Positions 29,093 through 47,903 of a DNA stretch of 47,903 bases are shown in pieces. The notes beneath the pieces are model-generated. The model was not told where the DNA came from, did no database searches, and saw only the letters and a list, made by a program, of their open reading frames with translations. Position 1 is the stretch's first letter. The number at the start of each line of letters is the position of its first letter. The DNA is from a virus. The position numbers and the translations under genes are program-made. Location: IMG/VR virus record IMGVR_UViG_3300028590_000028, positions 1 through 47,903 of that record. One strand, given 5' to 3'.

Positions 29093-29594
29093 CCGAGGTC
29101 GCGCAGCCGCAAGCCCGGCAGGCATTCAGTCCGCCCTCCTCGATCGGGATCACCTTGGAGATCGCCTTGAGGACCGCATTGCAGCCACGGCAGCCCGTCC
29201 CCAGGGTGGTGTGCATTGGGCAAGCCTGGCAGATCGCTAACCGGCGCTCCCGTTCAACGGTGTCCACGAACTTCCGGTCTTTGACTGCCTGAAGCACGGT
29301 GCGGAGGAACCGGTTGACCGTGGCCATCGTGAGAAGGGGATTCTCAGAAGCCGCCTTCACCGCCCCGCCGCACCACGGCTCCCCGTGGCCCGACTGCCGG
29401 CAGATCGCGTCGTCGAGCACATCGGAGTCCGGCATCGGGAGACCATTGGCGTTGAGGTGCGCGGCGATCCGTTGCTTCAGCGACTTCGCGTAGGGGGCCT
29501 TCAGTTCGATCCCGGTCTCCGGGACGACGTATTTCCATCCGCCCGGGGGGCTTTCGAAGTCCTGGATGATGGCGAGTTTCTTCGGTTCACTCAT
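28998..29594 (-). CDS. hypothetical phage protein with Cys-rich region, 198 aa
   Basis: N-terminal 60 residues are mixed, the middle has I-C-R-Q-S-G-H-G-E-P-W-C-G-G, and residues 135-165 hold C-Q-A-C, C-R-G-C and C-R-A-C-G-C, two probable zinc sites. This Cys-pair layout (Q-A-C-P then G-C-x-G-C) resembles a phage family of unknown function. Last gene of the virion operon; its start overlaps the stop of the large protein gene (ATGA). Confidence 0.62.
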   Translation of the reverse strand: MSEPKKLAIIQDFESPPGGWKYVVPETGIELKAPYAKSLKQRIAAHLNANGLPMPDSDVLDDAICRQSGHGEPWCGGAVKAASENPLLTMATVNRFLRTVLQAVKDRKFVDTVERERRLAICQACPMHTTLGTGCRGCNAVLKAISKVIPIEEGGLNACRACGCATSVKAVLDLDTLKKAEGSNRPPYAQGCWMLSDP

Positions 29595-35500: not shown

Positions 35501-35800
35501 TCCCTTCACCTGCGCCTCCATCAGCGGGAGATCCCAATCGCCGTCTTCCTTGCGCCGGATGCCCTTGTCCGAAGCCCCTTGCAGCGCGGCCGTCGCGGAA
35601 CCGAACAGCCCAGCGTCCTGCAACCGCTTGGTCAGGTCGGCACGGGCATCGGGACGGGCGGCTTTCGGAGTCTGTGGAACTTCCGTTCCACGGGGAACAT
35701 CTTGTTCCACGGGGTCCTCGACCAAGGTGGCAGAGGCGGGATCGAACCCGGTATCCGGCTCGTCTTCAAGCAGGGTCGCGGTCGTCGGGTCGAATGCCAT
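29591..35800 (-). CDS. 2069-residue polyvalent ejection protein with zincin-type metalloprotease motif
   Basis: The largest gene in the window. It opens M-A-F-D-P-T-T-A-T-L-L with a second F-D-P-A-S-A-T-L-V-E-D-P copy. Residues 1-450 are helical/Ala-Gly rich. H-E-L-S-H (733-737), with E-x-F-A-R-G-F about 40 residues on, matches zincin metalloproteases embedded in phage polyvalent proteins. Residues 1000-1600 are long charged coiled coil. The C-terminal third has hydrophobic segments (I-P-W-W-I-W-P-T-L-A-G and V-L-A-A-A-V-G-L), as in large ejected internal proteins of short-tailed phages. Likely injected with DNA, and may cleave host or virion proteins. Role is inferred from family resemblance. 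Confidence 0.8.
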   Translation of the reverse strand: MAFDPTTATLLEDEPDTGFDPASATLVEDPVEQDVPRGTEVPQTPKAARPDARADLTKRLQDAGLFGSATAALQGASDKGIRRKEDGDWDLPLMEAQVKGDFLDEFTGAISQGATALRQKLGSRMDDVPDNGVIDKKATQKIFHDFQQANNLSDDEVAAVWSDLGNQNRTWAKDETVRTLSDGELLPNPGSPVWLNPDTAKAAIEATDTTPEIKAAALSQIPQLATEIAAQKTAAYEAAAEASNTGQRAGVLGVAQLFADRVVPPSEWAAKTGRTDVGSPQFVLDYEKTVDPGFLEGIAGKVVLSGNKLATQTLGTLGAMGITSAGDAAAESSATAATINQGLPDTGLAGAAVEELLPIGAQILTGRGFAAFGKTAAALGTFATAGTQSAGLTFAEERANGATEEEAREKAVKAGLSTAIITSMFGTGAGGGVERFAAGQAADDVTVRALLQMARDRGIREVAKSPELRKFAGTVAASTIGEGAEEGIDQLLGAFLQADPDTSLADAWEQATQAFKVGAAIGGGVDVAMNIVQHAPRTAAALAETPAETVTEAFEPVEIVTDEEGSQAPVGIDPGSAILGTPTTQDGVLPEVQTAAPAAGTESDLGSNRGVPPEVAGQITPGPTTGAEIPASEGVEPITPSPDSDPTLYSRDRLKDTFDLTDEQADVTDALVQSMGLDTSRIRLTRGGTPGQGLSMEGEASVPQGIKGSFEVLENGDMLLRGLTNPDVSTGLHELSHVARRTLFDKTAPPAGMTVEDIEVAERWAGAEDGVWTKNAEEKFARGFERYLRDGKAPDSRLAKVFAKIENWLKGIYESLAGSPVNVRVTPEMRAVFDRLVTRNLDAGIPATADGLTSSKVIPEVIENAPASDTVAKEAPAEIPAATEEPVLADAEESPPPETPTPLEPESSAPDFDAPYDPEAPTGLKHAITDADRARYGLPPRGVAPATTNQVSWDRALAAEQAHRAAGKPGTAGGDLLNSLLQNAPRALTPDEHALLLHEKIRRQQVVDAAYSTLNALPQTLTEGDRKNAQAAMVSAQEDFDNLLVYADAAGSASGLSLQARKMLVHQDYSLATVLNRALAAKNKHSEKPQKLTEKERQQAIDLALKLQKAQERADSLEAENKELGGMIDRLTKEVEDAQKKLRAKGRDPKSRARIKEKLQPKIDEAKARLAEKGKFKFLAQEELSPEDSQDVEDLATVASEWLVDRELSLPDFTSRLIDTFGDFAEPLAGHVFNKANEIYLEASESLESGTATRNPSRQEVLDGITPEGDTPSREDIWALARAHVVAGLRGNKVLNAVFDDLAPLFPGLTREQVATDFTGYGKVTLPSDKEVPKELNRIRSLERIALKILDVKSGKPPKKTGSQRGEQDVEIRELEKEFRKLLKESGIRVTDPARQIKSTLGAIKRRMQNEIEELQRALDSGKRRAENSPVPVEYDEEAETLKEQLDQLRKDYEEAFGDKKLSEEDRIKIAEKSLERRIKTAEELKAAGLTSRPRTTFSSAWSPNISDLNARLKGIQDARKEMARESGATDAARLARQLASIKNRKVELERRMREKDFSPKAKPTPLKNSELVKARFELEKLKAAYNEMLIEHAITNANFSKKLAYNIRSGGNLLKVTTLGGDFGVLFRNLGGATMASITEDMKKLLPGARGAEARANESAFLSMLKQGARAFGSAEYEAALFDEIMHRPNAAYDQAYGLKFASPFDSARISTEDIPAANLLDKIPWWIWPTLAGAKIAWIASNPVLAAAVGLSGAKIAGLLGVSVAQKPLLQALDRAQRAMTNHARATLMDAMIASMPDETVSMDDGKALAKAVMIGTGRGAVRSLESFMPALQTMTLAMRFYLSRVQALSVYPLWSGPMSADARKQIAGFYGKSVTGRAAIYALLALAFGKADDDDPEDTGVVLNPWSKDFGKVRISKNLMVDVGSGLQQFAGAFYRSVRGGVQDREAGEIKVYTPQEKANDMLRFLGTKRALTVGFLWDTWKGEYYGGKPRTIVTALDEVTSMIILNDMYQVYEEGGPVGGTLAAILMMAGGGVTVGSFEEEKAKWAALRNEKEIERQERGERLNQ

Positions 35801-35830: not shown

Positions 35831-36940
35831 TCAATCCCATTGACCGCCGCCCTTGTAGGTTTTCACGTTGCCATTGGCGTCCCGGTAGCGCTTGCCCACG
35901 ACGAACTTGTCTTCGGGAGATGCGGCCGGAGGGGTCGCCGGAGCTTCTTCCTCCTTGGCACCGTACTGGGCGGCGTCCCAGACTTCCCCGCGCTTTTTCT
36001 TCGCGGCGTCCGAAAGCCCGGTGACCTTGTTGACGTAGGCCGAACGGTCCATGTTCCGGGCACTCGCCAGCTCGGACTCGAACTTGTTGGACTCGTAAAG
36101 CCGGGCGTCCTCGTAGCCGGGATCAGCCTTGACGTCCTTCTTCTCGTCGAACTTCTTGCCCTTCTCCGCCATCTTGCGGCTGCGGAGAACGTCGACCTGG
36201 TTGGGGAAAGCGGCAGTGTCGACCACGTGCTCCTCGGCGATCTTGCGGGCCGGGTCGTCCTTGGGGCGGCCCTCCATGCGGATCGCCTGCTTCTCCTTGG
36301 CCATCTCGACCGAGTCGTCCTTCTTCTGCTGCCGGGTGCGCTCGTAGGCAAGGTTCCCGGCAGCCGCGAAGTCGTAGTCGCCATCAGGCAGATTGAAGCG
36401 GTCGCGCTCCTCCGGGCTCAGGACATTGAGCCACGTGGCGTTCTTCATCCTCGTGGTCGTGAGTTCCTTGCGGCGGGCAAAATCTTCGTCCCGGCGGGCC
36501 TTCAGATCGGCTTCCTGTACGCGATTGTCGTAGGCCTTGTCATTGGCCACCATGATCGCCGTGACGGCGTCATCGTCACGCACGTTCGGCGGGAGCTGCT
36601 GGTAGAGCGCCGTCCGGGCCGTCTGGTAGTCCTCGGCCATCGGGTCGAGCAAGGCGATCTGCTTGAGGAAGTCGCCGCGTTGGGCCTTCCAGTCCTGCTT
36701 CTCTTGATACTCGGCATTATCCCGATCCCACTCGACCTGTCGCCGTCCCATCAGCAATCGGTCTTCCCGGCTGCGGGCCAGCCGTGACGAGGCGTCCGCG
36801 AGGGCCGCTGAACTCTCGGCCCCGATCTTGGAATTGCCGTAGCGGGCAATCACACTCTGGCTGTCCGCCTGATCGAAGTAATTCGTCCGGGCAGCAGAGG
36901 GTGCAAGGCTTTCGGCAGCAGTTTCGAGAGTGGAGGGCAT
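35831..36940 (-). CDS. probable internal virion protein, 369 aa
   Basis: Almost fully helical with charged heptad repeats (residues 45-330) and an A-P-A-T-P-P-A-A linker before a small C-terminal beta piece (G-K-R-Y-R-D-A-N-G-N-V-K). Size, composition and position between two large helical proteins resemble the internal virion proteins of podoviruses; no enzyme motif. A 30-base gap separates it from the large gene downstream. Confidence 0.55.
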   Translation of the reverse strand: MPSTLETAAESLAPSAARTNYFDQADSQSVIARYGNSKIGAESSAALADASSRLARSREDRLLMGRRQVEWDRDNAEYQEKQDWKAQRGDFLKQIALLDPMAEDYQTARTALYQQLPPNVRDDDAVTAIMVANDKAYDNRVQEADLKARRDEDFARRKELTTTRMKNATWLNVLSPEERDRFNLPDGDYDFAAAGNLAYERTRQQKKDDSVEMAKEKQAIRMEGRPKDDPARKIAEEHVVDTAAFPNQVDVLRSRKMAEKGKKFDEKKDVKADPGYEDARLYESNKFESELASARNMDRSAYVNKVTGLSDAAKKKRGEVWDAAQYGAKEEEAPATPPAASPEDKFVVGKRYRDANGNVKTYKGGGQWD

Positions 36941-36943
36941 GTG

Positions 36944-37666
36944 TCAGACTCGGTTCCGTTCCCACCATTGGCGACGGCGATCGAAGGCGGATCCTGAAAC
37001 GCCGAGCCGGGCGGCCCGGTCTTTCAACTGGGCGATCTCAGCTTCCGAGGAAGACTTCCCGAGGGCGTCATCGAGAGTCCGGCGAGCGGTGAGGTCCTGG
37101 TCCTTGCGGAGAATGTTTTCGGGCTGTTGGACGCCGAGGCGATTGGCGGAATCAAGCCCGCGTTGGAGGATGGTGTCATCGCCCGTTCGCTGGCCTTCAA
37201 GAATGTCGAGGGCGGCGGTGTTCCGGGACTCCGGCATCACGGTGGCCCCGACGCCCTCCGATTGGGGTGCCGATCGTCGTTTTTGAATCTCTTCCTCGGT
37301 CTGAAGTCGTTTCAATTCGGCCGCACGTTCATTGTCCATGGCGGCCTGTTGGCGGGCGTCAAGGTTGCGTAGGAGGCCGGAGTTGAACTCGTTCCGGCGA
37401 CGGATGCCGCCCGGCGAGAACCCCTCTTCATTGGCCTCCCGCTGCACGTCGAGCAGGGCGAGGGCCGAACGGGAGTCACCACGGCGGGCTTGGCGTTTCA
37501 GGATTCGGTTCGCCAGGTTGTAGTTCTCGGCACGCTGGCGATACTGGCCGCCTTCGGACGAGTTCACCTGTCCCTCGGTGCTGGTGGGACGGGTGGCCGC
37601 AGTGCTGCCGAACGGGCGGCGTTGCAGCTCGTCCAGTCGGTTGAGTCCTCGGAATTGGGTGGCCAT
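36944..37666 (-). CDS. probable internal virion protein, 240 aa
   Basis: Helical, Arg/Gln-rich (Q-Y-R-Q-R-A-E-N-Y-N-L-A-N-R-I-L-K-R-Q) with S-A-L-A-L-L-D-V-Q-R-E-A-N and a flexible N-terminus. It is spaced by 3 bases from the next gene. Probably an ejected or scaffold-type virion component, by position and composition only. Confidence 0.5.
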   Translation of the reverse strand: MATQFRGLNRLDELQRRPFGSTAATRPTSTEGQVNSSEGGQYRQRAENYNLANRILKRQARRGDSRSALALLDVQREANEEGFSPGGIRRRNEFNSGLLRNLDARQQAAMDNERAAELKRLQTEEEIQKRRSAPQSEGVGATVMPESRNTAALDILEGQRTGDDTILQRGLDSANRLGVQQPENILRKDQDLTARRTLDDALGKSSSEAEIAQLKDRAARLGVSGSAFDRRRQWWERNRV

Positions 37667-37668
37667 GG

Positions 37669-38346
37669 TTATCGGAAGGTTCGGATGCCGCGGATGCCGC
37701 GGCCGTTGGGCCGGATGTTGGGAATCGGGGCTGCCCCGCCACGTTGGTTGTTGCCTTCGCGTTCTTCGAGACGTTTGACAGCTTTATTCCGATAAATGGA
37801 TGCGTTTCCTGAATCACCCCGCTCACCCCACATAACGGAAAACATCGCATGTTTCAAAGCCTCATAGCTTGGGCAGAGGGTGCGATTCGTCGTCCCAGCA
37901 GGAAGGGAGTTCTCGTTCGGGGCGAGGTCGTAGAGGCGGGCTGGGGCCCGCATGCAGAGGGCCACGATCGTCAGGGTGTCGGATTCGATCCCGGTGACCT
38001 TGTAGGTCCGGAGGTCGTCATCATTGAGCCCTTGGTCGATCAGCCGGACGTCCGAGCCGCCGTGGACGTCGATCTCCCCCGGACCCTCTGGCCCGAATTC
38101 GAAGTCCTCCATCGACACAGGTGCCGGGTAGCCGTCGAGATGTGCCCCGAGAATCGAAGCCATGTTGGAGGGGAGGGTGATGACGTTGTTGACCGAGGTC
38201 AGCGTTTGTCGAGCCTTACAAAAAGCCCACTTCCCGGATTCGAGCATCATAATATCCGCCTCGGTAAGTATCCGAAGGAACGTCTCGTCATCCCCCGGGG
38301 CGATCTGCGCCTGATAGAGTTCACGGAGTTGGGCGACGGTCGGCAT
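37669..38346 (-). CDS. adaptor/tail-tube-like virion protein, 225 aa
   Basis: N-terminal Q-L-R-E-L-Y-Q-A, F-L-R-I-L-T-E-A-D-I-M-M-L-E-S-G-K-W then V-I-T-L-P and a beta-rich centre resemble the head-tail connector proteins of short-tailed phages (the L-x-E-A-x-x-x-L-L-x-S-G-K-W pattern). The C-terminus is basic with G-I-R-G-I-R. Assignment is by pattern memory, not a motif of known chemistry. Confidence 0.5.
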   Translation of the reverse strand: MPTVAQLRELYQAQIAPGDDETFLRILTEADIMMLESGKWAFCKARQTLTSVNNVITLPSNMASILGAHLDGYPAPVSMEDFEFGPEGPGEIDVHGGSDVRLIDQGLNDDDLRTYKVTGIESDTLTIVALCMRAPARLYDLAPNENSLPAGTTNRTLCPSYEALKHAMFSVMWGERGDSGNASIYRNKAVKRLEEREGNNQRGGAAPIPNIRPNGRGIRGIRTFR

Positions 38347-38363: not shown

Positions 38364-39191
38364 TCAGTTCACCGTAGCAAGATTCAAGGTGTCCACATCA
38401 GTAATGAACCTCGCCCCGTCGGCCGCGAACAGGTTCGTGTTGGTGACCTTGTAGCGGAGACCTTTCTCCAGTTCGATCGAGGCGTAGCCGCTACCGTTGG
38501 TAGAGACCGTCTGGGTGGCCCGGGAAACGACCCGCCCGCCGCCGGAGACTTGCATGCCTTTCTCCAGTTCGAAGGTGAGCACTTCTCCTTCCAGCAGCTC
38601 GCCGAGGATGTCCTGCGTGTAGACGTAGACGACGCAGAGGTCCGGGTTCCCGGATGGCGGGACCGAGGACGTCAGGTCCATCTCAAGGTCGTTGGTCAGG
38701 GTGCCCGCTTCGTTGCCGGAGACCGTGCGTGTCGTCGGGGTGAAGGAGTAGCCTGCCTTGGTGACCGAAACGCTGTAGGTCGCGGCATCGAGGGAGAACT
38801 GGGCCTGACCGCTGGCGTTGGTCGTTGCCACGAATGAACTGACCCCCTCGTTGAGGCGGACGATGGCGTTCTGGAGTGGGTCGGTACCGTCGGTCACGGT
38901 GACCGTGATGGTGTAGGCCCCGTCGCCTGCACCTCCGCCTCCCCCTCCTTCAAGGGCCTCGATCGCAAGGGCGTCCCGGAGATCCTCGAACGCCGTGGCG
39001 AGGGTGACCGTGTCGTTCCAGTATACCGCGACCGCGTCTGCCGGCAGCGTGGCCGTCGCGATATAGGTGCCGGTCTCAGGGGTCGTGTTGATGCCCGAGG
39101 TCACCCGGCTGCCGAGCAAGGTCCCCGAGTCGTCCAGGAACTGGTAGCCGAGATTCGCCTGAGCGGCTCCGAAGCGTGCGGTGATGATCAT
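38364..39191 (-). CDS. Ig/carboxypeptidase-regulatory-like virion protein, 275 aa
   Basis: Residues 90-175 form a repeat of carboxypeptidase-regulatory/Big-type fold: G-T-D-P-L-Q-N-A-I-V-R-L, T-N-A-S-G-Q-A-Q-F-S-L, A-A-T-Y-S-V-S-V-T-K-A-G-Y. Similar A-T-Y-x-V-x-V modules decorate phage tails and capsids and bind host glycans. A G-rich linker (residues 80-87) precedes it. Start overlaps the preceding small gene. Confidence 0.68.
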   Translation of the reverse strand: MIITARFGAAQANLGYQFLDDSGTLLGSRVTSGINTTPETGTYIATATLPADAVAVYWNDTVTLATAFEDLRDALAIEALEGGGGGGAGDGAYTITVTVTDGTDPLQNAIVRLNEGVSSFVATTNASGQAQFSLDAATYSVSVTKAGYSFTPTTRTVSGNEAGTLTNDLEMDLTSSVPPSGNPDLCVVYVYTQDILGELLEGEVLTFELEKGMQVSGGGRVVSRATQTVSTNGSGYASIELEKGLRYKVTNTNLFAADGARFITDVDTLNLATVN

Positions 39192-39375: not shown

Positions 39376-40161
39376 TTAGGCTGCGATGGCTCCTCGAAGC
39401 GCAAGAATGATCCAGCCGCGCGTCGTGACGTATTGGAGGGTGATGGAGTCTCCCGCCGCGCTGCTGGCGATGGTCGTGTAGCCGGTCGCGGTGGTCGGGG
39501 TCAGGATGAAATCCCCGCCGTCCACGTCGTGAATGATCGTCTTGATCTGACCGGCAGTGCCGTTGGCAAGAGTGAGGGCTTGAGCCGCTCCAGTGGTCGT
39601 GACCAGCGTGCAGGATGTCGTCACACTGACCGCTCCCGCTCCGCTTCGGGTGTCGGGGGTGGTGGCCAGGCTGACCACGGTGGTCGTGCCGTTCGCCGCT
39701 ACCCGGAAGCGTTCGGTGGCGCTGCCTGAAACCTGCGGCCGAACGACGAAGTCCCCGGTGTCATCCGCGCCAGTGCGGAGGAAGCCGATGGCCCCGATGA
39801 GATTGTTTGAGACGCCGGTATCGGAGAAGCGGAAGCCGATGGTGGGGCCGAAACCATCGGTCACATCCCCCGAGGAAACCGCGGTGATGTTGGTACCTGC
39901 CGCAATCGAATTGGTGGAAGATGTAGTGCGACGGATGTCGATGACCGGATTGGCGGAGTGCTCAATGGTCTGCGCCCCGGTAATGCTGTTTCCGCCTGCC
40001 AGGGCCGCCGCACCAAGGTCTCCCCGGGTCTCGGCTGCCGTTCGTTCGGTGACCGTGCCATCGGTGTTCAGGCGCAGCCATGAAGCCGCTCCCCTGACGA
40101 CTTTGATGTCGAGCAGCTCGGCGAAACGGGAGAAGATTCGGAATGCGCCCATGGGACGCAC
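39376..40161 (-). CDS. probable tail-fibre/appendage protein, 261 aa
   Basis: Residues 25-60 (W-L-R-L-N-T-D-G-T-V-T-E-R-T-A-A-E-T-R) are a fibre-type neck, followed by Gly/Thr/Ser/Asn-rich beta stretches (A-G-T-N-I-T-A-V-S-S-G-D-V-T-D). The Q-T-I-E-H-S-A-N-P-V-I-D-I-R-R and V-S-V-T-T-S-C-T-L-V-T-T-T segments resemble trimeric fibre shafts. A start at 40152 is as likely. It lies between the sugar-modifying gene and the Ig-like protein. Confidence 0.6.
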   Translation of the reverse strand: MRPMGAFRIFSRFAELLDIKVVRGAASWLRLNTDGTVTERTAAETRGDLGAAALAGGNSITGAQTIEHSANPVIDIRRTTSSTNSIAAGTNITAVSSGDVTDGFGPTIGFRFSDTGVSNNLIGAIGFLRTGADDTGDFVVRPQVSGSATERFRVAANGTTTVVSLATTPDTRSGAGAVSVTTSCTLVTTTGAAQALTLANGTAGQIKTIIHDVDGGDFILTPTTATGYTTIASSAAGDSITLQYVTTRGWIILALRGAIAA

Positions 40162-40201: not shown

Positions 40202-42439
40202 TCAGAAGGGTGCCTTGACCTCGAACTTCGCCGGATTCGGCCACCGGGCTTCGATGGCTTCCTTGAGTTCATCGGTCAGCAGGTGGTCGGTGTGATTGAG
40301 ATACCGGGCGTCCCCGAAGTCGGTGGTCTGGGTCCGGTGGCCGTTGCACGGCATCCCGTCTTTCGGGAACAGGTTAAAAACCGCGAGTTCCAAGGCCATC
40401 TTGCTCCAGCAGCCGAACTTCTCGAAGACCTCCATCACTTCCGCCCGCCGGAAGACGTACGGGGTGTGGGTCGAGTAGTGGAACGGTTCCGTGACGCCTT
40501 CGGCCGCCAGAAGGTCGAGCATCCGAAGGTAGCCTTGCTTCCACGGGTTCGAGTTCTCGATCATCGACCGCCGGAGTTCCGGGGTGACCGGGCCGAAGTG
40601 CAGGGGCTTCTCGACGTCCGCCCACGAGGTGTCCTTGAGGAACAGGATGTCGTCGTTCATCCAGAGGGACTTCTCGGCGATCGCGAGGCCCTGCATCAGG
40701 GCGGACTCGTAGCCCCAGCATTCAAGAAACTTTATTCGTGAATTCTTGAGCAGGCGATGCGGCTCCGCGGTGCCGAGGATGAAGATCGGGCAGTCCTTGT
40801 CCTCGAAGTGCTGCTCCAGTGAGCGTAGGCTATAGTAGAGAGACTTCCCCCACTTGTCCTTCATCTGGTGCCACGGGTACAGGATCGCCCGGTCGTATTG
40901 GATCCGCTGCGACCGGAGGCCCGTCAGGTTGGCCGCCGGGATGCCGCCCTCGCGATGCCGGGTGACTGGGACCTTGATCCACCGGTCGGGTGCCGGCTTC
41001 CAGTCGCCGTAGCTGCCGGGCTTGTGATGCCAGATTTCCGGGACGACCACGGGGCCTTTCTCCCCAAGCCATGCTCCCCACCACCCGAAGGTCGAGTTGC
41101 TGATGACGTGGGCATCACAGGCGACCATGGTGCGGAGGCCGTCGATGGCTTCCTGCGGCGGCATGACCGTGACGTCGGGCAGCTTGCCGAAGGTCTTCCG
41201 GCACCACTCGGGGTCATCGGAGACGATGAAGAAATGGCTGGCGGGAATCTTGGCCCGCATCCAGTCGATCGCATTCTGATAGTAGCCTTCCGTGCAGACA
41301 TTGAGCCGGGGGTGGCCAACGTAATCCCCGCGGCGGACTTGCACGGCTACGGGGATTTTCCCTGCCGGGACGTCGAGTGGCAAGGGGTCGAGCTTGAAGA
41401 TTTCGCGGATCTCGTCGGCGACATCGGCGAAGCATTCCTCGGCCTGATAGGGGTTGGCCACCGCACAGACCTTGTGCCCTGTGTCCGTGATCCGGTGCAT
41501 CGACTTGTCGACCATCGCGTAGTTGCCTTGCCCAAGTTTGGAGCAGACGACCGGGACCTCGCGGAACGGGAGGATGCCGAAGCCGAAATGCTTCAGCCCG
41601 AACTCCCGGTAGCCGGTGTCCTGATACTGCCAGCGCAACGGGATGCCGAGCTTCCGGGCGATATTGATGCCGGCGGCCATCTCGAACAACTGGTTGCCAA
41701 GGCCGCAGTTCTTGACGAACTGGAGATAGAAGACCTTGTCCTGGTGAGGTGTGTGTCCGGGGTGGACGCTGTAGCGGAGGCCGTCGGGCTTCGTGTGAAG
41801 CATCCCGGACGCCTTGAATTCCTCGTAATCGGCTACCTTGTCAGTGCCCCAGAAGTGACGGAACCATGCAGGCTCGTGGTCCTTGCCGCCCCGGTTCCAT
41901 TCGGAGGAGAGCTGGTTGAAGGGTATGCCCATTGCCCGAGCGTGGGAAGCCACAGCATTAAACCAGTGTTGATCGAGGAAGAACTCCACCATACGGAGTT
42001 CACACATGGCCTCGCGGAGTTTGTTTGCTCCCTTGCGATCGACGATCCAAATCCCCGCATTCGAGTAGCGGTGTGGTCCAAAAGGCGATGGCCCATAGGT
42101 TTCCCGAAACCAGTCTTCCCATTGCGCCTGATGCTCCGCGTGATAACAGTCGGTTGCCATCGAGAGGCCCGGCTTGAGCGGTGGAAGCGGGGCCTCCGGG
42201 TGGACCCACACATCGAGGTCCATGTAGATCATGAAGTCGGCCTTCCCGGCGAGGAACGACTCGACCATATCGAGTTCCGCGAACTTGGCCGCCGGGTAGC
42301 CCTTCTCCTTGGCAACATTGTCGTCCCAAGTCACGACTTTCAAATCGTGCCGCTTTGCATAGGCCTCGATCGTCGGGACGCACAGGCGCATCCAGTCGGT
42401 CTTATTGCCGTATTTAAGGAGGTGGAGTTCAATCTTCAT
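40202..42439 (-). CDS. three-domain glycosyltransferase with central alpha-1,2-fucosyltransferase-like domain, 745 aa
   Basis: Residues 1-225: GT-A-type transferase with the metal-binding D-L-D-V-W-V (74-79). Residues 240-470: N-C-G-L-G-N-Q-L-F-E-M-A-A-G (244-257), V-Q-V-R-R-G-D-Y (366-373), H-F-F-I-V-S-D-D and S-N-S-T-F-G-W-W-G-A-W (447-457) match the GT11 alpha-1,2-fucosyltransferase motifs. Residues 510-745: a second GT-like domain with C-W-G-Y-E-S-A-L-M-Q-G and W-M-N-D-D-I-L-F (593-600), like Stealth-type proteins. Substrates and acceptor unknown. Fusion of these three activities in a phage virion operon is unusual. Confidence 0.82.
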   Translation of the reverse strand: MKIELHLLKYGNKTDWMRLCVPTIEAYAKRHDLKVVTWDDNVAKEKGYPAAKFAELDMVESFLAGKADFMIYMDLDVWVHPEAPLPPLKPGLSMATDCYHAEHQAQWEDWFRETYGPSPFGPHRYSNAGIWIVDRKGANKLREAMCELRMVEFFLDQHWFNAVASHARAMGIPFNQLSSEWNRGGKDHEPAWFRHFWGTDKVADYEEFKASGMLHTKPDGLRYSVHPGHTPHQDKVFYLQFVKNCGLGNQLFEMAAGINIARKLGIPLRWQYQDTGYREFGLKHFGFGILPFREVPVVCSKLGQGNYAMVDKSMHRITDTGHKVCAVANPYQAEECFADVADEIREIFKLDPLPLDVPAGKIPVAVQVRRGDYVGHPRLNVCTEGYYQNAIDWMRAKIPASHFFIVSDDPEWCRKTFGKLPDVTVMPPQEAIDGLRTMVACDAHVISNSTFGWWGAWLGEKGPVVVPEIWHHKPGSYGDWKPAPDRWIKVPVTRHREGGIPAANLTGLRSQRIQYDRAILYPWHQMKDKWGKSLYYSLRSLEQHFEDKDCPIFILGTAEPHRLLKNSRIKFLECWGYESALMQGLAIAEKSLWMNDDILFLKDTSWADVEKPLHFGPVTPELRRSMIENSNPWKQGYLRMLDLLAAEGVTEPFHYSTHTPYVFRRAEVMEVFEKFGCWSKMALELAVFNLFPKDGMPCNGHRTQTTDFGDARYLNHTDHLLTDELKEAIEARWPNPAKFEVKAPF

Positions 42440-42782
42440 TCGCGATCCACTTTCGAAGGGACTTCCAGAAACCCTGCCTAACAGGAGCCTCCGGTTCTTT
42501 TTCCGGGAAAACCTTCAGTTTCAGATTCTCCGCATCCAATTCTTCCTCGGTCTTCATGCCTTTCTCTTTTTCGAGGTATTCGATCCAGTGTTCCTTGAAG
42601 CTGTAGAGGCCCTCCCCCACCCCATGCCCACATCCGGGGCAATCCCATTTGACACCACGGCAAGCCTCTCCATGAACATCATAGTGGTCGGGGATCAGGT
42701 CTTCTTTCGTGAGGGCATACTTCGACCCGCACTTGTAGCACTCCCACTCCAGTTCGTCTTGGGGTCCTGAGATCAGTCTCAT
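42429..42782 (-). CDS. zinc-ribbon protein, 117 aa
   Basis: C-Y-K-C-G-S-K-Y near residue 15 and C-P-G-C-G-H-G-V near residue 48 form a two-knuckle zinc ribbon. The C-terminal part is a charged helix ending W-K-S-L-R-K-W-I. It overlaps the fusion transferase start by 11 bases. Function unknown. Confidence 0.62.
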   Translation of the reverse strand: MRLISGPQDELEWECYKCGSKYALTKEDLIPDHYDVHGEACRGVKWDCPGCGHGVGEGLYSFKEHWIEYLEKEKGMKTEEELDAENLKLKVFPEKEPEAPVRQGFWKSLRKWIANED

Positions 42783-42786
42783 AGCT

Positions 42787-42987
42787 TCACCAGTCTTCGT
42801 AGTTCGTGAGATCGAGTTCCTTGTCGAAGTGGGTCACTTTGAAGATCACCCCGAGTCCGGTAGGCGTGAATGAGTAGGTCGTGGCCCCGCCGATGGCCCC
42901 GGCATTATTGTCGATGCGACTTGCTTCGACCTGTTTCTTGAACTCCGCGATCTTCGCGGAGTTCTCTGGTGAGATTTCGAATTTCAT
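42787..42987 (-). CDS. hypothetical small protein, 66 aa
   Basis: Unrecognised. Helix in residues 8-25, then V-T-H-F-D-K-E-L-D-L-T-N-Y strand-type end. Overlaps the next gene's stop by ATGA. Codon use is average. Confidence 0.55.
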   Translation of the reverse strand: MKFEISPENSAKIAEFKKQVEASRIDNNAGAIGGATTYSFTPTGLGVIFKVTHFDKELDLTNYEDW

Positions 42988-43355
42988 TTCAAACCTAAAC
43001 TGATCGCAACCGCTGCACCAAGAATCTGATGGAGTGCTTTAGTTCGATGCTCGGGAATTCGAGAGTCCCAATACTCAGACTCCAATGCTTTCCGAACCAC
43101 GCCATCCGTGGGGCTCGTGCGCTCGGATTCCGGTTTTGTGTGTCTTAGTAGGATCAGACGGAAGCAGCGGAAATTTTCGATTTTCTCCACTTCTTCCGGA
43201 GCGATCGGACCTTCCGCATAGATCGGTTCATTCTCTTCTTCATCCCAACCGATGGGTTGAATTGTATAACTCTTTTCCTTCAAGGAGGACTTCACACTTC
43301 CCGGTTCCCCGATGGGGGTGTCGAAGCCGCTCTCAATGATGTCGAAGTATTTCAT
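42984..43355 (-). CDS. hypothetical protein, 123 aa
   Basis: Unrecognised. Acidic N-terminus (Y-F-D-I-I-E-S-G-F-D-T-P-I-G), a charged middle with R-C-F-R-L-I-L-L-R-H-T-K, and helical end. ATG 43355 is chosen because it overlaps the FkbM-like gene stop. A TTTACCAA half-site lies just upstream (43360-43367), inside that gene. Confidence 0.55.
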   Translation of the reverse strand: MKYFDIIESGFDTPIGEPGSVKSSLKEKSYTIQPIGWDEEENEPIYAEGPIAPEEVEKIENFRCFRLILLRHTKPESERTSPTDGVVRKALESEYWDSRIPEHRTKALHQILGAAVAISLGLK

Positions 43356-44035
43356 GGTATTGGTAAATAAAGTGCATCGAACTGCGGGTCTCCCCACTTC
43401 GCGTTCGCCGGATAAAGCGCGGCCTCCCGGTAGCCGAGCGACCGGATCAGGTCATCGAGGCCTTCGACCGTGAAGCCGTTGGCTTCCAGACAGCCCTTGT
43501 TGAACTCCACGAAGAGAATCAGCTTGTGGCGGGTGATGGTGCCCGCCATGCCTGTAATCACACGAGGCTCGAAGCCCTCACAATCGAGCTTACAAAATTC
43601 TGGTGCCGGAAGATCCGGGAGATCGTCAAGCGCGTGGCACGGCACCGTCCACTCCCCGTCTTCCCGGATGCGGGAGGCCCCGAGATTGTCGTCCTGCCCC
43701 ATGATGACCGCGCCGTTGACGTCGGACCCCGCGATGTTCAGGCACAGGGCTTCCGGGCCGAGGTTGTGCTGGAGGCAGGCGAACGAGATCGGCATCGGTT
43801 CGATGGCGACCACGTAGCAGCCCCATCGCTGGTACTGGACGGCGTGAGATCCGATGTTCCCGCCGATGTCCCAGACGACACCCTTGCCCCGGACGAAAGG
43901 TTCGAGGAACCGCATGACGTGCGGATCGCTGACGATGTCGCCGTGCTGCTCGGCCCACCGGGAGAGGTGGCTGTCATGCTCGGCGACCCAGTAGTCGGTG
44001 CCGGGAACTACTACGATTCCAGTAGGTGGGGTCAT
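43352..44035 (-). CDS. FkbM-family SAM-dependent methyltransferase, 227 aa
   Basis: V-V-W-D-I-G-G-N-I-G-S-H-A-V-Q-Y (about 53-68) is the SAM-binding Gly loop, Y-V-V-A-I-E-P-M-P the acidic second motif, and K-L-D-C-E-G-F-E-P-R-V-I (about 150) the FkbM motif. These enzymes O-methylate sugars or polyketides. In this operon sugar methylation of a virion glycan is the likely job. Stop overlaps the next start. Confidence 0.85.
   Translation of the reverse strand: MTPPTGIVVVPGTDYWVAEHDSHLSRWAEQHGDIVSDPHVMRFLEPFVRGKGVVWDIGGNIGSHAVQYQRWGCYVVAIEPMPISFACLQHNLGPEALCLNIAGSDVNGAVIMGQDDNLGASRIREDGEWTVPCHALDDLPDLPAPEFCKLDCEGFEPRVITGMAGTITRHKLILFVEFNKGCLEANGFTVEGLDDLIRSLGYREAALYPANAKWGDPQFDALYLPIP
43360..43367 (-). 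promoter_or_regulatory. single TTTACCAA half-site
   Basis: TTTACCAA read on the minus strand lies five bases before the gene start at 43355, within the end of the FkbM gene. It equals one arm of the palindromes at 15742 and 24551. A single 8-mer could be chance. Confidence 0.25.
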
Positions 44036-44370
44036 TCCGGGATGATGACGTTGTAAAGGCTGATGAAAGCTTGTCCGTTCGCAGGGATGAATCCTTCGAT
44101 AGCTGGAACGTCCCCTTCCTCGTTCGACATGCCTACGTCAATACCGTATTCATCACTCAATCGAACTCGGAGGCTTTCCATCTCGTTCCACACGAAATTC
44201 GGGGAAGACGCCATGATGTGAACGAAGGGGATCGGGAGATCACACTCGAATTGATGCGTCTTCCCATCTCCTGAATCCCGAGTATCGAAACCCCATTCAC
44301 GGAGCTTCAAAACCGTGCTTCGGATTCCAGGGTTCAAGGCGGCGATCTGTTCTTCGGTTAATTGAGTCAT
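44032..44370 (-). CDS. hypothetical protein, 112 aa
   Basis: Unrecognised. Starts T-Q-L-T-E-E-Q-I-A-A-L-N-P-G-I, then alternating strands with an acidic/hydrophobic end (A-F-I-S-L-Y-N-V-I-I-P-E). Coupled to both neighbours by ATGA overlaps. Confidence 0.6.
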   Translation of the reverse strand: MTQLTEEQIAALNPGIRSTVLKLREWGFDTRDSGDGKTHQFECDLPIPFVHIMASSPNFVWNEMESLRVRLSDEYGIDVGMSNEEGDVPAIEGFIPANGQAFISLYNVIIPE

Positions 44371-45014
44371 GCCAGTATCCGGGTTATCTCTTCGAGGTTC
44401 TTGGTGATCGTGTCGTGCGACCAAAACTGCCAGACAAGCGGCGGCGGGCACTCCACAGAGGTATCCATCCAATAAAAGTCATCGCGGTGATTCAGCCAGC
44501 AGTGGTGGCCCATCGCATTCCACTCTGTGAACGTCGGCTGCGCCATGATGAACTCTTCGATCCCGACGCCGAAACGATGGAAGCAATGCTCCCGGATCGA
44601 CTGGAGGACGTGCCGCGGGAACATGAAGGGCTGTCGGCGCATGAACTCCGCAGGCGGCTCGGCACCATTGAAGTCCCGCATCACGTTCCACCACGTCTGC
44701 ATGGCCTCGGTCGCCAGCATCTCCGGCGTCCATGGCGTCATGAACCAGATCGGCTTGCCCTCCCGCATGAAGGACTCCGGGGTGACCGGCTCCACGAACA
44801 AGGTATCCGAATCGGTGACGAGAATGAAGTCGGCGTCCGTGTATTGGTCGGCGTGGAGCTTCACCACCTGTTGCCAGAGGTAGCCCTTCGGATGCTCGCC
44901 CTCGATCACCCGGACTTCCGAAAACCCGGTGCAGAACTTCTCGATGCTCTTGAGACAATACCTGTGATACTCGGCATCGTGGAGGCAGGTCTTGATCAGG
45001 ATGGCGGTCTTCAT
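44367..45014 (-). CDS. glycosyltransferase-like protein (GT-A type), 215 aa
   Basis: I-L-I-K-T-C-L-H-D-A-E-Y-H, F-I-L-V-T-D-S-D-T-L-F-V (DxD metal motif near residue 66-72), and W-F-M-T-P-W-T-P then R-Q-P-F-M-F-P-R-H-V-L are typical of small phage and bacterial GT-A proteins (DUF6492-like). The terminal W-N-A-M-G-H-H-C-W and W-Q-F-W-S-H-D-T also fit. Donor sugar and acceptor unknown. Confidence 0.72.
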   Translation of the reverse strand: MKTAILIKTCLHDAEYHRYCLKSIEKFCTGFSEVRVIEGEHPKGYLWQQVVKLHADQYTDADFILVTDSDTLFVEPVTPESFMREGKPIWFMTPWTPEMLATEAMQTWWNVMRDFNGAEPPAEFMRRQPFMFPRHVLQSIREHCFHRFGVGIEEFIMAQPTFTEWNAMGHHCWLNHRDDFYWMDTSVECPPPLVWQFWSHDTITKNLEEITRILA

Positions 45015-45304
45015 TTCCGTGATCGTAAAATCCGGGTCGCCAGGTTTGCATCCTCCAATGCTTCTGCGAGCAAGTCACGGTCGTAAGCCCGGCGTCCTTC
45101 CTCCGTCATCATCGGGTGGAAGCGACTCAGGTCCTCCAAAGTCGTCACGCGGGTCTCCTCGTAGGTCGAGGTCCCTCTGTGATCTGATGTCGGGGTTTTC
45201 GTCCTCTCGACCACGATGACCTTCGGTTCTTCCGGCTTCCCGGAAACCAGTGGCACCGGGGCGAACGCTCCGGCAATCAGTCCTAACAGGGATCGGCGTT
45301 TCAT
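45011..45304 (-). CDS. exported protein with twin-Arg-like signal, 97 aa
   Basis: M-K-R-R-S-L-L-G-L-I-A-G-A-F-A-P-V-P-L-V-S-G is a hydrophobic signal (residues 1-22) with R-R-S-L at its start, close to a Tat-type motif but short. The mature part is polar, with V-V-E-R-T-K-T-P-T-S-D and a charged helical end. An exported or membrane-anchored protein between two glycosyltransferase genes is odd; it may modify or protect the cell envelope. Confidence 0.55.
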   Translation of the reverse strand: MKRRSLLGLIAGAFAPVPLVSGKPEEPKVIVVERTKTPTSDHRGTSTYEETRVTTLEDLSRFHPMMTEEGRRAYDRDLLAEALEDANLATRILRSRK

Positions 45305-45549
45305 GTTAAAATCTCCTTTCTGACTGCTATCATGGCGTCCGCCATGTGGTAAGCAAATTCCGCGATGTCGCGTTCTGAGCCTTCCTCAAGCCTGTGAGCC
45401 TCGGCATAAACTGCTGGAAGTGCGGCGGCAGCAAAATAGTCCCGAAGAGTCATTCCCGTTGGCGCAGGCGCGTCGAAAGGTGCCCCTGGTGGGGGATAGC
45501 CGCCGGGAAACGCCGGTCCCCCATCTTTGATCTGCTTTTCGTCGCTCAC
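45301..45549 (-). CDS. small conserved phage-type protein, 82 aa
   Basis: D-G-G-P-A-F-P-G-G, G-M-T-L-R-D-Y-F-A-A-A-A-L-P and Y-H-M-A-D-A-M-I-A-V-R-K match a common small prophage/phage protein of unknown function. GTG at 45549 follows an AT-rich, inverted-repeat-containing gap, so it may begin a sub-operon. Confidence 0.72.
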   Translation of the reverse strand: MSDEKQIKDGGPAFPGGYPPPGAPFDAPAPTGMTLRDYFAAAALPAVYAEAHRLEEGSERDIAEFAYHMADAMIAVRKEILT

Positions 45550-45555
45550 CCCGCC

Positions 45556-45584
45556 CTTCTATTTACAATTTTACAGGGCGTCAA
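45556..45584 (-). promoter_or_regulatory. candidate internal promoter with inverted repeat
   Basis: Reading on the minus strand, TTGACG (45584-45579) and 17 bases later TAGAAG (45561-45556). The same stretch contains CGCCCT...AGGGCG arms around an AT-rich centre, a possible operator. It lies in the 31-base gap between 45550 and 45580, the largest inside the right half of the minus-strand operon. The -10 is weak. Confidence 0.4.
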
Positions 45585-46249
45585 GGGCCGAAGGAATTTC
45601 GTTTGTCCGGATGCACTAACAGATTCGGATTCTTAATCAGGTCTTCTTCCCGGACTCCGAACGTCTGTGCATTCGTGTGAGTTTGTCTCACATTAAGGCC
45701 TGTCATCGTCAGGCCTGCACGGTAGATGACGCTTGGTATCGAAACTTCAGAAAAACAATCACGCATTTCCGGAGCACACCGAACGCACTCGTTCAAAGCC
45801 CTCTTAGAGAGTCTAAACACCGCCATTAACATGTGGTGCGTAGCCCATTCAGGGGCAAGACTGCGGAGGTAATTATCGGTCTTCGGGTTGCGCTTCCGAA
45901 TCATGGGAGCTACGAGGTCTGAAGGATCGTTCTCAAAATCGGAGAACATCGCCTTCCATCTCTCTTGCGCGGCGACCACGTCGCTCTCGATAAACCAAAA
46001 ATGGTCTGCCCGGACACCGAGATGCCGGGCTGCCGAGAACCCTACGGCGTCCGCGCCCCACCAGCACTTCATCCGGTAAGGCATCGTCGGGTCGGTCGGT
46101 AGCCAGTCCTCCCGTGGCTTGAAGCTGACCGCATGCCGGTGAGGCTTGTCATGAGGGGTCACGACATAGACCTCGGGATGCGCGGCCTTCAGGGCATCAC
46201 AGCGGAGCTTGTAACCGAGGTGGTCCGTCAGGATGACGACACTCCTCAT
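45581..46249 (-). CDS. glycosyltransferase-like protein, 222 aa
   Basis: S-V-V-I-L-T-D-H-L-G-Y-K-L then Y-V-V-T-P-H-D-K-P, D-H-F-W-F-I-E-S-D-V-V-A (about 84-95, DxD-like), R-K-R-N-P-K-T-D-N-Y and S-V-I-Y-R-A-G-L-T-M-T are GT-A-type landmarks, but the match is weaker than for the neighbouring transferases. Overlaps the upstream gene stop by four bases. Confidence 0.6.
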   Translation of the reverse strand: MRSVVILTDHLGYKLRCDALKAAHPEVYVVTPHDKPHRHAVSFKPREDWLPTDPTMPYRMKCWWGADAVGFSAARHLGVRADHFWFIESDVVAAQERWKAMFSDFENDPSDLVAPMIRKRNPKTDNYLRSLAPEWATHHMLMAVFRLSKRALNECVRCAPEMRDCFSEVSIPSVIYRAGLTMTGLNVRQTHTNAQTFGVREEDLIKNPNLLVHPDKRNSFGP

Positions 46250-46659
46250 ACCGGGTAGCTGCTGGACCCCTCACATCCCGTAGCGATTGTCTTCTCGTCA
46301 TCGAAGCCTTCGAGGTTCGTCAGCCGGAGAATCTCGGCACCATCGCAGTCTTGGAACACCAGCGTCCCCTTGCCGGTGCCCCGGGCTTCATTCTTTGTCT
46401 TTCCCCCGGTGACCGGGAGGATCTTGGTTGGTAGCGGATCACGGTTAGCCGCAGCCTCGCCGACCTTCCGCAAAGCCGATGGACGCAGGGTCTTCGGTTC
46501 AAAGAACTCGGCCTTCCGCTGCCGTTGTTCCGCCTGCCGGGGACTCTCCTTGATCCGCGACTGCGCGGGCAGCATGGGGCCGTTCAGCGGTTGGACGCCG
46601 AAGAACGAGTCCCGGTTGGCCCGGGACTCCCGTTGTGCTGGGCTTTCTTGAAGGGCCAT
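46246..46659 (-). CDS. hypothetical virion-operon protein, 137 aa
   Basis: Polar and Arg/Gln-rich at first (Q-A-E-Q-R-Q-R-K-A-E-F-F-E-P-K) with a short beta C-terminus (T-L-V-F-Q-D-C-D-G-A-E-I-L-R-L). Start overlaps the stop of the Ig-like protein gene (TAATG). No known family. Confidence 0.5.
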   Translation of the reverse strand: MALQESPAQRESRANRDSFFGVQPLNGPMLPAQSRIKESPRQAEQRQRKAEFFEPKTLRPSALRKVGEAAANRDPLPTKILPVTGGKTKNEARGTGKGTLVFQDCDGAEILRLTNLEGFDDEKTIATGCEGSSSYPV

Positions 46660-47903
46660 TACGGGACGTAGTTATATTGCTCCCATTCCCACTTGCGATA
46701 ATCATTCACGTAAATCTGTTTGTCCCACGCCCCGTTCTTCCAGTAGACGTTCTTGTAGGTCTCCCGGTCGAAGCGGGCCACGGCGGTCTGTCCATCTGGG
46801 TAGGTGAACGTGCAGACGACCACCGGGTAGGGCAAGGGGACCGGGCCGGAGACGTCCAGCTCGATCGCGGTGACGTAGTGCCCGTAGTTTTGCACCGCGG
46901 CTCCGGGGTCGATCGTCGCCGTGGAAGCCGTGTAGCCGTAGGGCGTGTAGACCTCGGTGTTATCGGGGATGTTCAGCCGGACGACATCCGCCTTGTTGGT
47001 CCCGGGGAACGAGATGGTGAGATTGATCCCCGGCACCCAGTCGAGGATGTAGGCATACATCCGGTAGAAGAAAGAGTCGTCCACTCCTCCCGTGACCCAT
47101 CCGTTCGGAACATCGCTGCCCCAGATGGTGGTGACCGGCCCCATCTGGAGGCCGATGACCGGCACCGTCACCGGGATGAAGGGGTAGAAGATCCGCACGG
47201 GGTCCGAGTCGCCGGTCGTGTACCTCGCGTAGACGTCGAAGGCCGTGCCGGGCGGGCTGTCGGGCAGGTTGAAGATGAAGGTATTGTTCGCCCCGTTCAG
47301 GGTCGCCGTGGTTTCCGAAAGGGTCAGGACGTTGCGGATCCTGATGGAGGTGGCCCCGGAGGGCGTGTTGCCGACATATCCTGCCGAGGTCCTCGTGAAC
47401 GAGGGGACCACGAGGTTCAGATCGGCGAAGGTCAGGAACGCCGGGGCCGACCGGACGTCCTCGTTCCCGTTCACTGCGGCGACCACTTGCACCCGCTCGC
47501 CACGGATCAGCTTGTAGTCGAGGTTGCAGGTGTACGAGCCGCCGCCTCCAACGATCGCCCCGTCGCCGATCTCGTCGTCACCATCATAGACGAGGATCTT
47601 CGTGGACGGGGTCGCCCCGGTGCCGGTGATCGTGTCACTGTCGCCGATGACCGGGGTGCCGACGGTCGGCGGGGATGCGTTGGCCTCAAGGATCAGGGCC
47701 GCTGAGGTGCCGCCGGCATCGCTGGCGGTCACCGCGATCACGTCACCCGCGGTCAGTGCCGCCCCGAAGGAGTAGGAGTAAACCCCGGAGGAGTTGGCAA
47801 CGGTCGTGGCGGCCGTGCCACCGGGAGTCGTGTTGACGCTGTCCGGGGCGTTTTCGAAGCCGCCCGCCGTGCCTGCGGTGATCGAGATCGCGAGGGACGT
47901 GTC
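46659..47903 (-). CDS. Ig-like surface protein of the virion, 5' end missing
   Basis: The frame stays open to the last base, so 414 residues of the C-terminal part are seen. Residues 1-125 (from the window edge) contain a Big-type fold: A-N-A-S-P-P-T-V-G-T-P-V-I-G-D, then T-I-T-G-T-G-A-T-P-S-T-K-I-L-V and G-S-Y-T-C-N-L-D-Y. Further beta-rich regions follow, with G-D-S-D-P-V-R-I-F-Y-P and W-V-P-G-I-N-L-T-I. Such Ig-like modules sit on phage tails or capsids and bind host glycans. Confidence 0.75.
   Translation of the reverse strand, partial: DTSLAISITAGTAGGFENAPDSVNTTPGGTAATTVANSSGVYSYSFGAALTAGDVIAVTASDAGGTSAALILEANASPPTVGTPVIGDSDTITGTGATPSTKILVYDGDDEIGDGAIVGGGGSYTCNLDYKLIRGERVQVVAAVNGNEDVRSAPAFLTFADLNLVVPSFTRTSAGYVGNTPSGATSIRIRNVLTLSETTATLNGANNTFIFNLPDSPPGTAFDVYARYTTGDSDPVRIFYPFIPVTVPVIGLQMGPVTTIWGSDVPNGWVTGGVDDSFFYRMYAYILDWVPGINLTISFPGTNKADVVRLNIPDNTEVYTPYGYTASTATIDPGAAVQNYGHYVTAIELDVSGPVPLPYPVVVCTFTYPDGQTAVARFDRETYKNVYWKNGAWDKQIYVNDYRKWEWEQYNYVP

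What the first reader, a model, noticed from the sequence alone, without database searches (positions are those of the whole stretch)
40202..46249. Virion-operon glycan cassette: three GT proteins plus an FkbM methyltransferase
Between Ig-like virion proteins and a fibre-like protein lie a GT-like gene (45581), a GT-A gene (44367), a FkbM sugar-methyltransferase (43352) and the triple-domain fucosyltransferase (40202), interleaved with small coupled genes and an exported protein. They share one operon with structural genes, so co-regulation with virion assembly is expected. Multi-step glycan building and O-methylation in this position is rarely described.
Basis: partly seen in the sequence, partly recalled or inferred. 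Interest (0 to 1): 0.8.

Follow-up and report, generated by a model that had tools for sequence, protein, structure and literature searches.

The report
Phage sugar-methylation genes beside virion genes
An uncultivated phage carries sugar-transferase and sugar-methylation genes inside its particle-building gene block, and a core pair of these genes recurs in many unrelated uncultivated phages beside head, portal and tail-connector genes, which suggests that these phages coat their own particles with methyl-capped sugars.

Summary
The genes are real and tightly coupled (mostly ATGA overlaps). FkbM (43352-44035) and a GT11 domain inside 40202-42439 are solid. 44367 is a DUF6492/Stealth-like GT-A protein, and 45581 a marginal GT-A. 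'Triple-domain fucosyltransferase' is only partly shown. The gene at 37669-38346, downstream on the same strand, is a head-to-tail adaptor by predicted fold, so the cassette does lie in a virion gene block.

What is conserved is not the four-gene cassette but the pair GT-A + FkbM. It is adjacent or fused in 32 distinct viral lineages, evolves in step, and belongs to a FkbM clade containing only viral rows. In an adaptor-selected sample, GT-A sits just upstream of the adaptor in 45/48 contigs. In a second lineage, every contig (33/33) has a glycosyltransferase in the scaffold-to-putative-capsid slot, with a variable set of further GTs, methyltransferases and GDP-fucose synthase. In a few lineages the pair is on the replication side or the opposite strand.

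Best reading: phage-encoded virion glycosylation with an O-methyl cap (about 0.6). Modification of the host surface remains open. Activity and target are untested. Phage virion glycosylation is known; I found no description of this module.

The parts
46659..47903 (-). Ig-domain (Big_6) protein, cut by the contig end; likely virion surface or fibre protein
   Evidence: PF17936 E 2.4e-8
46246..46659 (-). 137-aa protein of unknown function coupled to the GT gene
   Evidence: 4-nt overlap with 45581-46249
45581..46249 (-). GT-A-like glycosyltransferase (222 aa), marginal
   Evidence: PF00535 E 8.2e-5, 23.0 bits against cut-off 23.3; no relative found in the loci
45301..45549 (-). 82-aa small protein
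   Evidence: phrog_2201 E 2.7e-16, unknown function
45011..45304 (-). 97-aa protein with a signal-peptide-like N-terminus
   Evidence: read by eye (MKRRSLLGLIAGAFAPVPLVSG); no family
44367..45014 (-). GT-A (DUF6492/Stealth-like) sugar transferase; first half of the conserved pair
   Evidence: PF20102 2.5e-5; profile to GNPTAB E 1.5e-4; homologues at 27-59% identity
44032..44370 (-). 112-aa coupled protein of unknown function (likely start ATG at 44370)
   Evidence: start choice; 4-nt overlaps on both sides
43352..44035 (-). FkbM-family O-methyltransferase; second half of the conserved pair
   Evidence: PF05050 6.1e-14; profile to 2py6 'Methyltransferase FkbM' E 3.7e-8; viral-only clade
42984..43355 (-). 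small coupled protein (likely start ATG at 43355)
   Evidence: no family
42787..42987 (-). 66-aa protein
   Evidence: phrog_26220 E 3e-5, unknown function
42429..42782 (-). 117-aa protein with a CxxC...CxxC pattern, possibly zinc-binding
   Evidence: weak zinc-ribbon hit, E 0.05, below cut-off
40202..42439 (-). 745-aa multidomain transferase: unassigned N-terminal domain, GT11 (fucosyltransferase-type) middle domain, phrog_7999 C-terminal domain
   Evidence: PF01531 5.8e-23; QVRRGD at 367 and STFGWWG at 449; phrog_7999 6.6e-9
39376..40161 (-). fibre-like protein, unverified
   Evidence: no family match
38364..39191 (-). Ig-like protein, weak
   Evidence: PF24025 E 0.0023, below cut-off
37669..38346 (-). 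head-to-tail adaptor (connector)
   Evidence: AF2 model pLDDT 68; its 17 best PDB matches are phage tail, connector or portal-tail entries: Pa223, SU10, crAss001, Carin1, PhiM1, N4; hhalign to the adaptor family of relatives, probability 94%, E 1.2e-7
36944..37666 (-). 240-aa gene between adaptor and giant protein, likely virion
   Evidence: position only
35831..36940 (-). 369-aa gene between adaptor and giant protein, likely virion
   Evidence: position only
29591..35800 (-). 2069-aa giant protein, internal-virion-type
   Evidence: 33-43% identity over about 120-175 aa to giant proteins of Xanthomonas CP2, Pseudomonas AF, Cobetia Carin1 and Caulobacter Jess A phages, E to 6e-18

Best explanation
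A phage-encoded pathway that glycosylates the phage's own particle and caps the glycan with an O-methyl group. During late gene expression the cytoplasmic GT-A enzyme (44367) puts a sugar, or sugar-phosphate, on a virion protein or on a sugar already attached to it. Accessory GTs of this phage (45581, and the 745-aa enzyme with a GT11 fucosyltransferase-type domain) lengthen or branch it with host nucleotide sugars. FkbM (43352) methylates a sugar hydroxyl with SAM, which would end the chain or mask it from host or bacterial enzymes and lectins. GT-A and FkbM are the conserved functional unit; the other enzymes vary between phages, as expected of a surface antigen under diversifying selection. 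Shown: the gene families named above, coupling of the genes, the adaptor fold, recurrence and fusion of the pair, and its linkage to head, portal and connector genes. Inferred: catalytic activity, sugar identity, methyl position, the acceptor (adaptor-proximal, Ig-like or fibre proteins here; capsid in the L097 lineage), late expression, and biological benefit.
For: Pair: 68 of 104 viral FkbM domains have GT-A on the same strand within 2.5 kb; five are GT-A-FkbM fusions. 32 distinct lineages at 80% identity; distances of the two proteins correlate, r 0.64, 0 of 5000 permutations. Tree: all 32 linked FkbM fall with 5 unlinked viral ones in one group without a cellular member, SH-aLRT 82; best cellular hit 31% over part of the protein. 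Slot: 16 of the 32 lineages have a labelled packaging or virion gene on the same strand within 8 kb, and the window makes 17. Adaptor-selected sample: GT-A just upstream in 45/48, pair in 29/48; counting only contigs not seen before, GT-A in 22/25. Putative-capsid-selected sample: a GT between scaffold and capsid genes in 33/33, pair in 12/33, with a variable set that includes GDP-L-fucose synthase. L105 lineage: pair directly upstream of a portal gene, phrog_7376 E 2.4e-24. An annotated GenBank phage (MW202462) has mannosyltransferase + FkbM-type methyltransferase upstream of terminase, portal, scaffold and capsid. No sugar-nucleotide or flippase gene appeared among the window ORFs scanned.
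Against: No biochemical or proteomic data. Gene position is not decisive: in mycobacteriophage Maravista, relative of the capsid-glycosylated Che8, the GTs lie near the 3' end of the genome (PMC11256854). In L002 and L023 the pair lies with replication genes; in L042/L043/L046 and L059 it is convergent with the giant virion gene, and in L115 it is on the other strand from the terminase. Capsid, scaffold and portal labels of the L097 lineage rest on gene order only (no Pfam, PHROG or PDB match; model unusable). GT11 was not found in 27 relatives' records (whose controls were also silent).
Confidence: 0.6

Rival explanations
1. The enzymes modify the host surface (LPS, capsule or other glycans) late in infection, for example to block re-adsorption of progeny or superinfection.
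For: FkbM, GT11, GT-A and WcbI-like enzymes are typical of bacterial surface-polysaccharide loci (family knowledge). In L002 and L023 the pair is on the replication side. A small protein with a signal-like N-terminus lies in the cassette.
Against: None of the cassette genes was assigned to a membrane GT, flippase or polymerase family, unlike gtrABC seroconversion cassettes (family knowledge). GT-A is nearly fixed just upstream of the adaptor (45/48), and another GT in the scaffold-to-capsid slot (33/33). The FkbM is a viral-only group.
Confidence: 0.22
2. The enzymes hypermodify phage DNA (glycosylated and methylated bases) as protection from restriction.
For: Virus-encoded GTs that glycosylate DNA are known (cited in PMC12619734). 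The window has DNA methyltransferase genes and a dATP/dGTP diphosphohydrolase-type gene.
Against: No base-hydroxylating or hydroxymethylating gene was recognised in the ORFs scanned; the pair is usually not with the nucleotide genes; FkbM enzymes methylate sugar or polyketide hydroxyls (family knowledge).
Confidence: 0.06
3. Horizontally acquired morons with no fixed target, carried in permissive gaps between virion genes.
For: Order and partners vary; GC of the small interleaved genes (0.50-0.58) is below that of the flanking virion genes (0.60-0.64).
Against: Co-variation and fusion of the two proteins and near-fixation in one slot imply selection for a joint function.
Confidence: 0.1

Closest known systems
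Mycobacteriophage virion glycosylation (Che8, Rita and relatives; Freeman et al. 2023, cited in PMC11256854 and PMC12619734)
   Same: Phage-encoded GTs, glycans on capsid or tail tube, proposed shielding role
   Different: There the GTs lie near the genome's 3' end (Maravista); I found no FkbM methyl cap described; here a GT-A/FkbM pair recurs in the head, portal or connector slot; target unproven here
Chlorovirus PBCV-1 glycan machinery: A064R (GT-GT-methyltransferase) and A111/114R (three GT domains incl. fucosyltransferase) (PMC9614988, PMC7826918)
   Same: Virus-encoded multidomain GTs plus sugar O-methylation building a virion glycan outside host pathways
   Different: Eukaryotic giant virus; A064R methyltransferase is not described as FkbM in the text searched; homology was not tested; N-linked on the capsid there, unknown here
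Stealth family / GNPTAB GlcNAc-1-phosphotransferase
   Same: GT-A family profile matches GNPTAB at E 1.5e-4
   Different: Small single-domain phage proteins; the Stealth_CR2 cut-off is not met (E 0.09)
Annotated phage ct2t2046 (MW202462, Manatee Spring)
   Same: Mannosyltransferase + FkbM-type methyltransferase upstream of terminase, portal, scaffold and capsid
   Different: Short GT; no study of the pair found

Membership tests
FkbM methyltransferase (PF05050) | Score over curated cut-off and class I SAM-binding motif | tested here: met
   52.9 bits against 22.7; VVWDIGGNIG, VAIEP and LDCEGFE retained
GT11 (alpha-1,2-fucosyltransferase type, PF01531) | Score over cut-off; HxRRGD-like and STFGWWG-like motifs | tested here: met
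   82 bits against 23.9; QVRRGD at 367, STFGWWG at 449
GT11 (alpha-1,2-fucosyltransferase type, PF01531) | Transfers fucose from GDP-fucose | not testable with these tools
   needs an enzyme assay
DUF6492 / Stealth-like GT-A | Score over the DUF6492 cut-off; DxD motif | tested here: met
   24.0 against 22.9 bits, 51 residues only; D-S-D invariant in 8 homologues
Stealth proper (PF11380) | Score over the Stealth_CR2 cut-off | tested here: not met
   13.4 against 39.4 bits
Phage virion glycosylation system | Glycan demonstrated on virion proteins | not testable with these tools
   uncultivated phage, sequence only
Phage virion glycosylation system | GT genes linked to virion genes in related phages | tested here: met
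   45/48 adaptor-selected, 33/33 putative-capsid-selected contigs; not universal
gtrABC seroconversion cassette | Bactoprenol GT, flippase and membrane GT | tested here: not met
   no such family among the ten cassette proteins
Head-to-tail adaptor (37669-38346) | Adaptor fold | tested here: met
   Foldseek E 2.6e-6, 17 best PDB hits all phage tail/connector/portal entries

The most novel reading that the evidence does not exclude
A widespread, undescribed 'methyl-capped virion glycan' system of uncultivated tailed phages: a viral-only GT-A/FkbM pair, sometimes fused, fixed beside adaptor, portal or capsid genes, on to which each phage adds a variable set of GTs, methyltransferases and GDP-fucose synthase. 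The result would be a diversifying, chemically capped particle coat like that of chloroviruses.
Probability: 0.45. Interest if true: 0.85.

Novelty: new variant of a known kind. Interest (0 to 1): 0.7.

Why it matters
Virion glycosylation is proven in only a few phages. If this module does what its position suggests, it is a compact, recognisable signature (GT-A + FkbM beside adaptor, portal or capsid genes) that predicts glycosylated, methyl-capped particles across many uncultivated phage lineages. It would make the question of how common phage coat glycans are, and what they hide from, testable from sequence plus a small set of enzyme assays.

Tried and rejected
Close relatives by DNA or by the 745-aa, adaptor and FkbM proteins singly: none, or one locus. 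L002's 271-aa protein and the L094/L108 'c17' proteins looked GT11-like by eye, but hhalign gave no support, so the idea of a recurring GT11 + GT-A + FkbM triad was dropped. GT11 and phrog_7999 were not found in relatives' records, though controls were silent too. An AF2 model of the L097 putative capsid was useless (pLDDT 34). Greedy gene calling hid some plus-strand genes under spurious antisense ORFs (capsid genes in L022 and L106); profile searches on all ORFs corrected this. First FkbM and GT-A profiles were contaminated by fusions and rebuilt on trimmed domains. The careful tree did not finish; the quick tree is reported. Of the papers held, none described phage FkbM + GT modules; the key mycobacteriophage paper is not held.
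Full report
WHAT THE WINDOW IS. The window is a whole IMG/VR virus record of 47,903 bases with no similar DNA among cultured phages for its right half. Plus-strand genes on the left are replication genes (primase, family A DNA polymerase, helicase, exonuclease, DNA methyltransferases). From 28,998 rightwards all genes considered here are on the minus strand. The giant protein 29591-35800 shares a 120-175 aa region with the giant virion proteins of Xanthomonas phage CP2, Pseudomonas phage AF, Cobetia phage Carin1 and Caulobacter phage Jess A, which are podovirus-type genomes with the order capsid - connector - nozzle - internal proteins - giant protein. The contig is a fragment: the Ig-like gene runs off its end, and no terminase, portal or capsid gene was recognised.

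THE OBSERVATION. The genes are present as described. FkbM is secure (PF05050 6e-14). The 745-aa protein has a secure GT11 domain with its motifs (PF01531 5.8e-23), flanked by two domains of uncertain nature. The 44367 protein is a DUF6492 GT-A protein; a profile of eight homologues finds GNPTAB, the Stealth-family sugar-phosphate transferase, at E 1.5e-4. The 45581 protein is a marginal GT2-type match. With start codons at 44370 and 43355 the genes are chained by 4-nt ATGA overlaps, and no terminator-like site lies on the coding strand. The gene at 37669-38346, which follows the cassette after the fibre-like and Ig-like genes, was modelled with 16 relatives (pLDDT 68); its 17 best PDB matches are all phage tail, connector or portal-tail complexes. 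The cassette therefore lies in a virion gene block, upstream of the head-to-tail adaptor.

THE CONSERVED UNIT IS A PAIR. Searching with single proteins gave one distant locus, L002, whose GT-A and FkbM are both homologous to the window's (E 2e-22 and 2e-24). Alignments built from these recruited about 100 viral loci. In 68 of 104 viral FkbM domains a GT-A lies on the same strand within 2.5 kb, in either order, and in five loci the two are one protein. Collapsed at 80% FkbM identity there are 32 linked lineages, and the pairwise identities of the two proteins correlate (r 0.64; no permutation of 5000 reached it). In a quick maximum-likelihood tree with 71 cellular FkbM proteins and one cultured-phage protein (AP-16-3), the 32 linked and 5 unlinked viral sequences form one group free of cellular members (SH-aLRT 82, moderate). 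The GT11 enzyme, the 45581 GT and the small genes were not found in these relatives.

WHERE THE PAIR SITS. Maps and labelled profiles show these settings. (A) TerS ... FkbM - GT-A - adaptor - two middle genes - giant protein (L012, L026, L040, L047, L048, L054 groups): the same slot as in the window; the window's adaptor is homologous to this adaptor family (hhalign 94%, E 1.2e-7). (B) portal - scaffold - GT - FkbM - GT-A - GT - putative capsid (L096/L097, L053/L106, L099; L107 similar). (C) between putative capsid and adaptor (L022). (D) directly upstream of a portal gene confirmed by phrog_7376 (L105, with L037 and L052). (E) upstream of a terminase-like gene (L010). Against this, L002 and L023 have the pair next to helicase and polymerase genes, L042/L043/L046 and L059 have it convergent with the giant gene, L045 has FkbM inverted, and in L115 the terminase is on the other strand. 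By automatic labels 16 of 32 lineages have a packaging or virion gene on the same strand within 8 kb (17 with the window), 5 only on the opposite strand, and 10 have no label in reach.

CONVERSE TESTS. To avoid choosing phages by their sugar genes, I selected by structural genes. Adaptor family: of 48 loci with at least 2.5 kb upstream, 45 have GT-A just upstream on the same strand and 29 have both genes; among contigs not met before, GT-A is in 22 of 25. Putative capsid family of lineage B: of 33 loci with at least 4 kb upstream, all 33 have a glycosyltransferase-like gene (phrog_1574 5.7e-17, weak phrog_12406 glycosyltransferase match; profile to a beta-1,3-glucosyltransferase E 0.0076) between scaffold and capsid genes, and 12 have the pair. 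The rest of that slot varies: other GT-like genes, methyltransferase-like genes, and in L251 a GDP-L-fucose synthase (E 1e-71 to solved enzymes). One fixed GT plus a changing set of sugar genes, all between scaffold and capsid genes, is what one expects if the product sits on the capsid. The capsid and scaffold labels rest on order only.

HOW IT MOST LIKELY WORKS. See Best explanation. The steps from enzyme to particle are inference. The main rival is modification of the host surface; position argues against it in most lineages, but position is not proof, since in a close relative of the capsid-glycosylated mycobacteriophages the GTs lie near the genome's 3' end (PMC11256854).

COMPARISON WITH KNOWN SYSTEMS. 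Phage virion glycosylation is known in mycobacteriophages (PMC11256854, PMC12619734). Multidomain virus-encoded GTs with a methyltransferase that build and methylate a capsid glycan are known in chlorovirus PBCV-1: A064R has two rhamnosyltransferase domains and one O-methyltransferase domain, and A111/114R three GT domains including a fucosyltransferase (PMC9614988, PMC7826918). This works like those; common descent was not tested. A GenBank phage from a spring metagenome carries a mannosyltransferase and a FkbM-type methyltransferase upstream of its head genes, and Caulobacter jumbo phages carry a FkbM relative at 32% identity in a non-structural region. I found no paper on the pair. I rate it a new variant of a known kind.

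Noticed in passing
L242-L281 (e.g. L251:2879-6837, L263:5234-6756): In a lineage of uncultivated phages the slot between scaffold-like and capsid-like genes always holds one GT family and then a variable set of sugar genes, including GDP-L-fucose synthase (L251:5177-6088) and heptosyltransferase-like and methyltransferase-like genes.
   Followed up: partly
window 27488-28009: dATP/dGTP diphosphohydrolase-type protein (PF18909 E 7e-27), a family associated with base-modified (2-aminoadenine) phage genomes; no PurZ-like gene was found in the window.
   Followed up: partly
window 29591-35800, about residue 735: Giant protein holds a zincin-like HELSH motif in the only region shared with CP2, AF, Carin1 and Jess A giant proteins.
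   Followed up: no
window 28998-29594: 198-aa protein homologous to one found beside giant genes in L043/L046/L059 and just upstream of portal-like genes in L097/L106/L107; function unknown.
   Followed up: no
L272:5923-6951, L278:3942-4901: Secreted-looking proteins resembling formylglycine-generating enzymes (by eye) inside the scaffold-to-capsid slot.
   Followed up: no
L010:4007-4780, L011:2017-2772, L017-L019: WcbI-like proteins next to the GT/FkbM genes, in L010 and L011 upstream of a terminase-like gene.
   Followed up: no
L021:12107-20533: 2808-aa giant protein with an N-terminal HATPase (HSP90/GyrB-like) domain (E 1e-6).
   Followed up: no
L045:8214-10622: FkbM is inverted relative to GT-A and adaptor, an apparent local inversion within an otherwise standard slot.
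   Followed up: no
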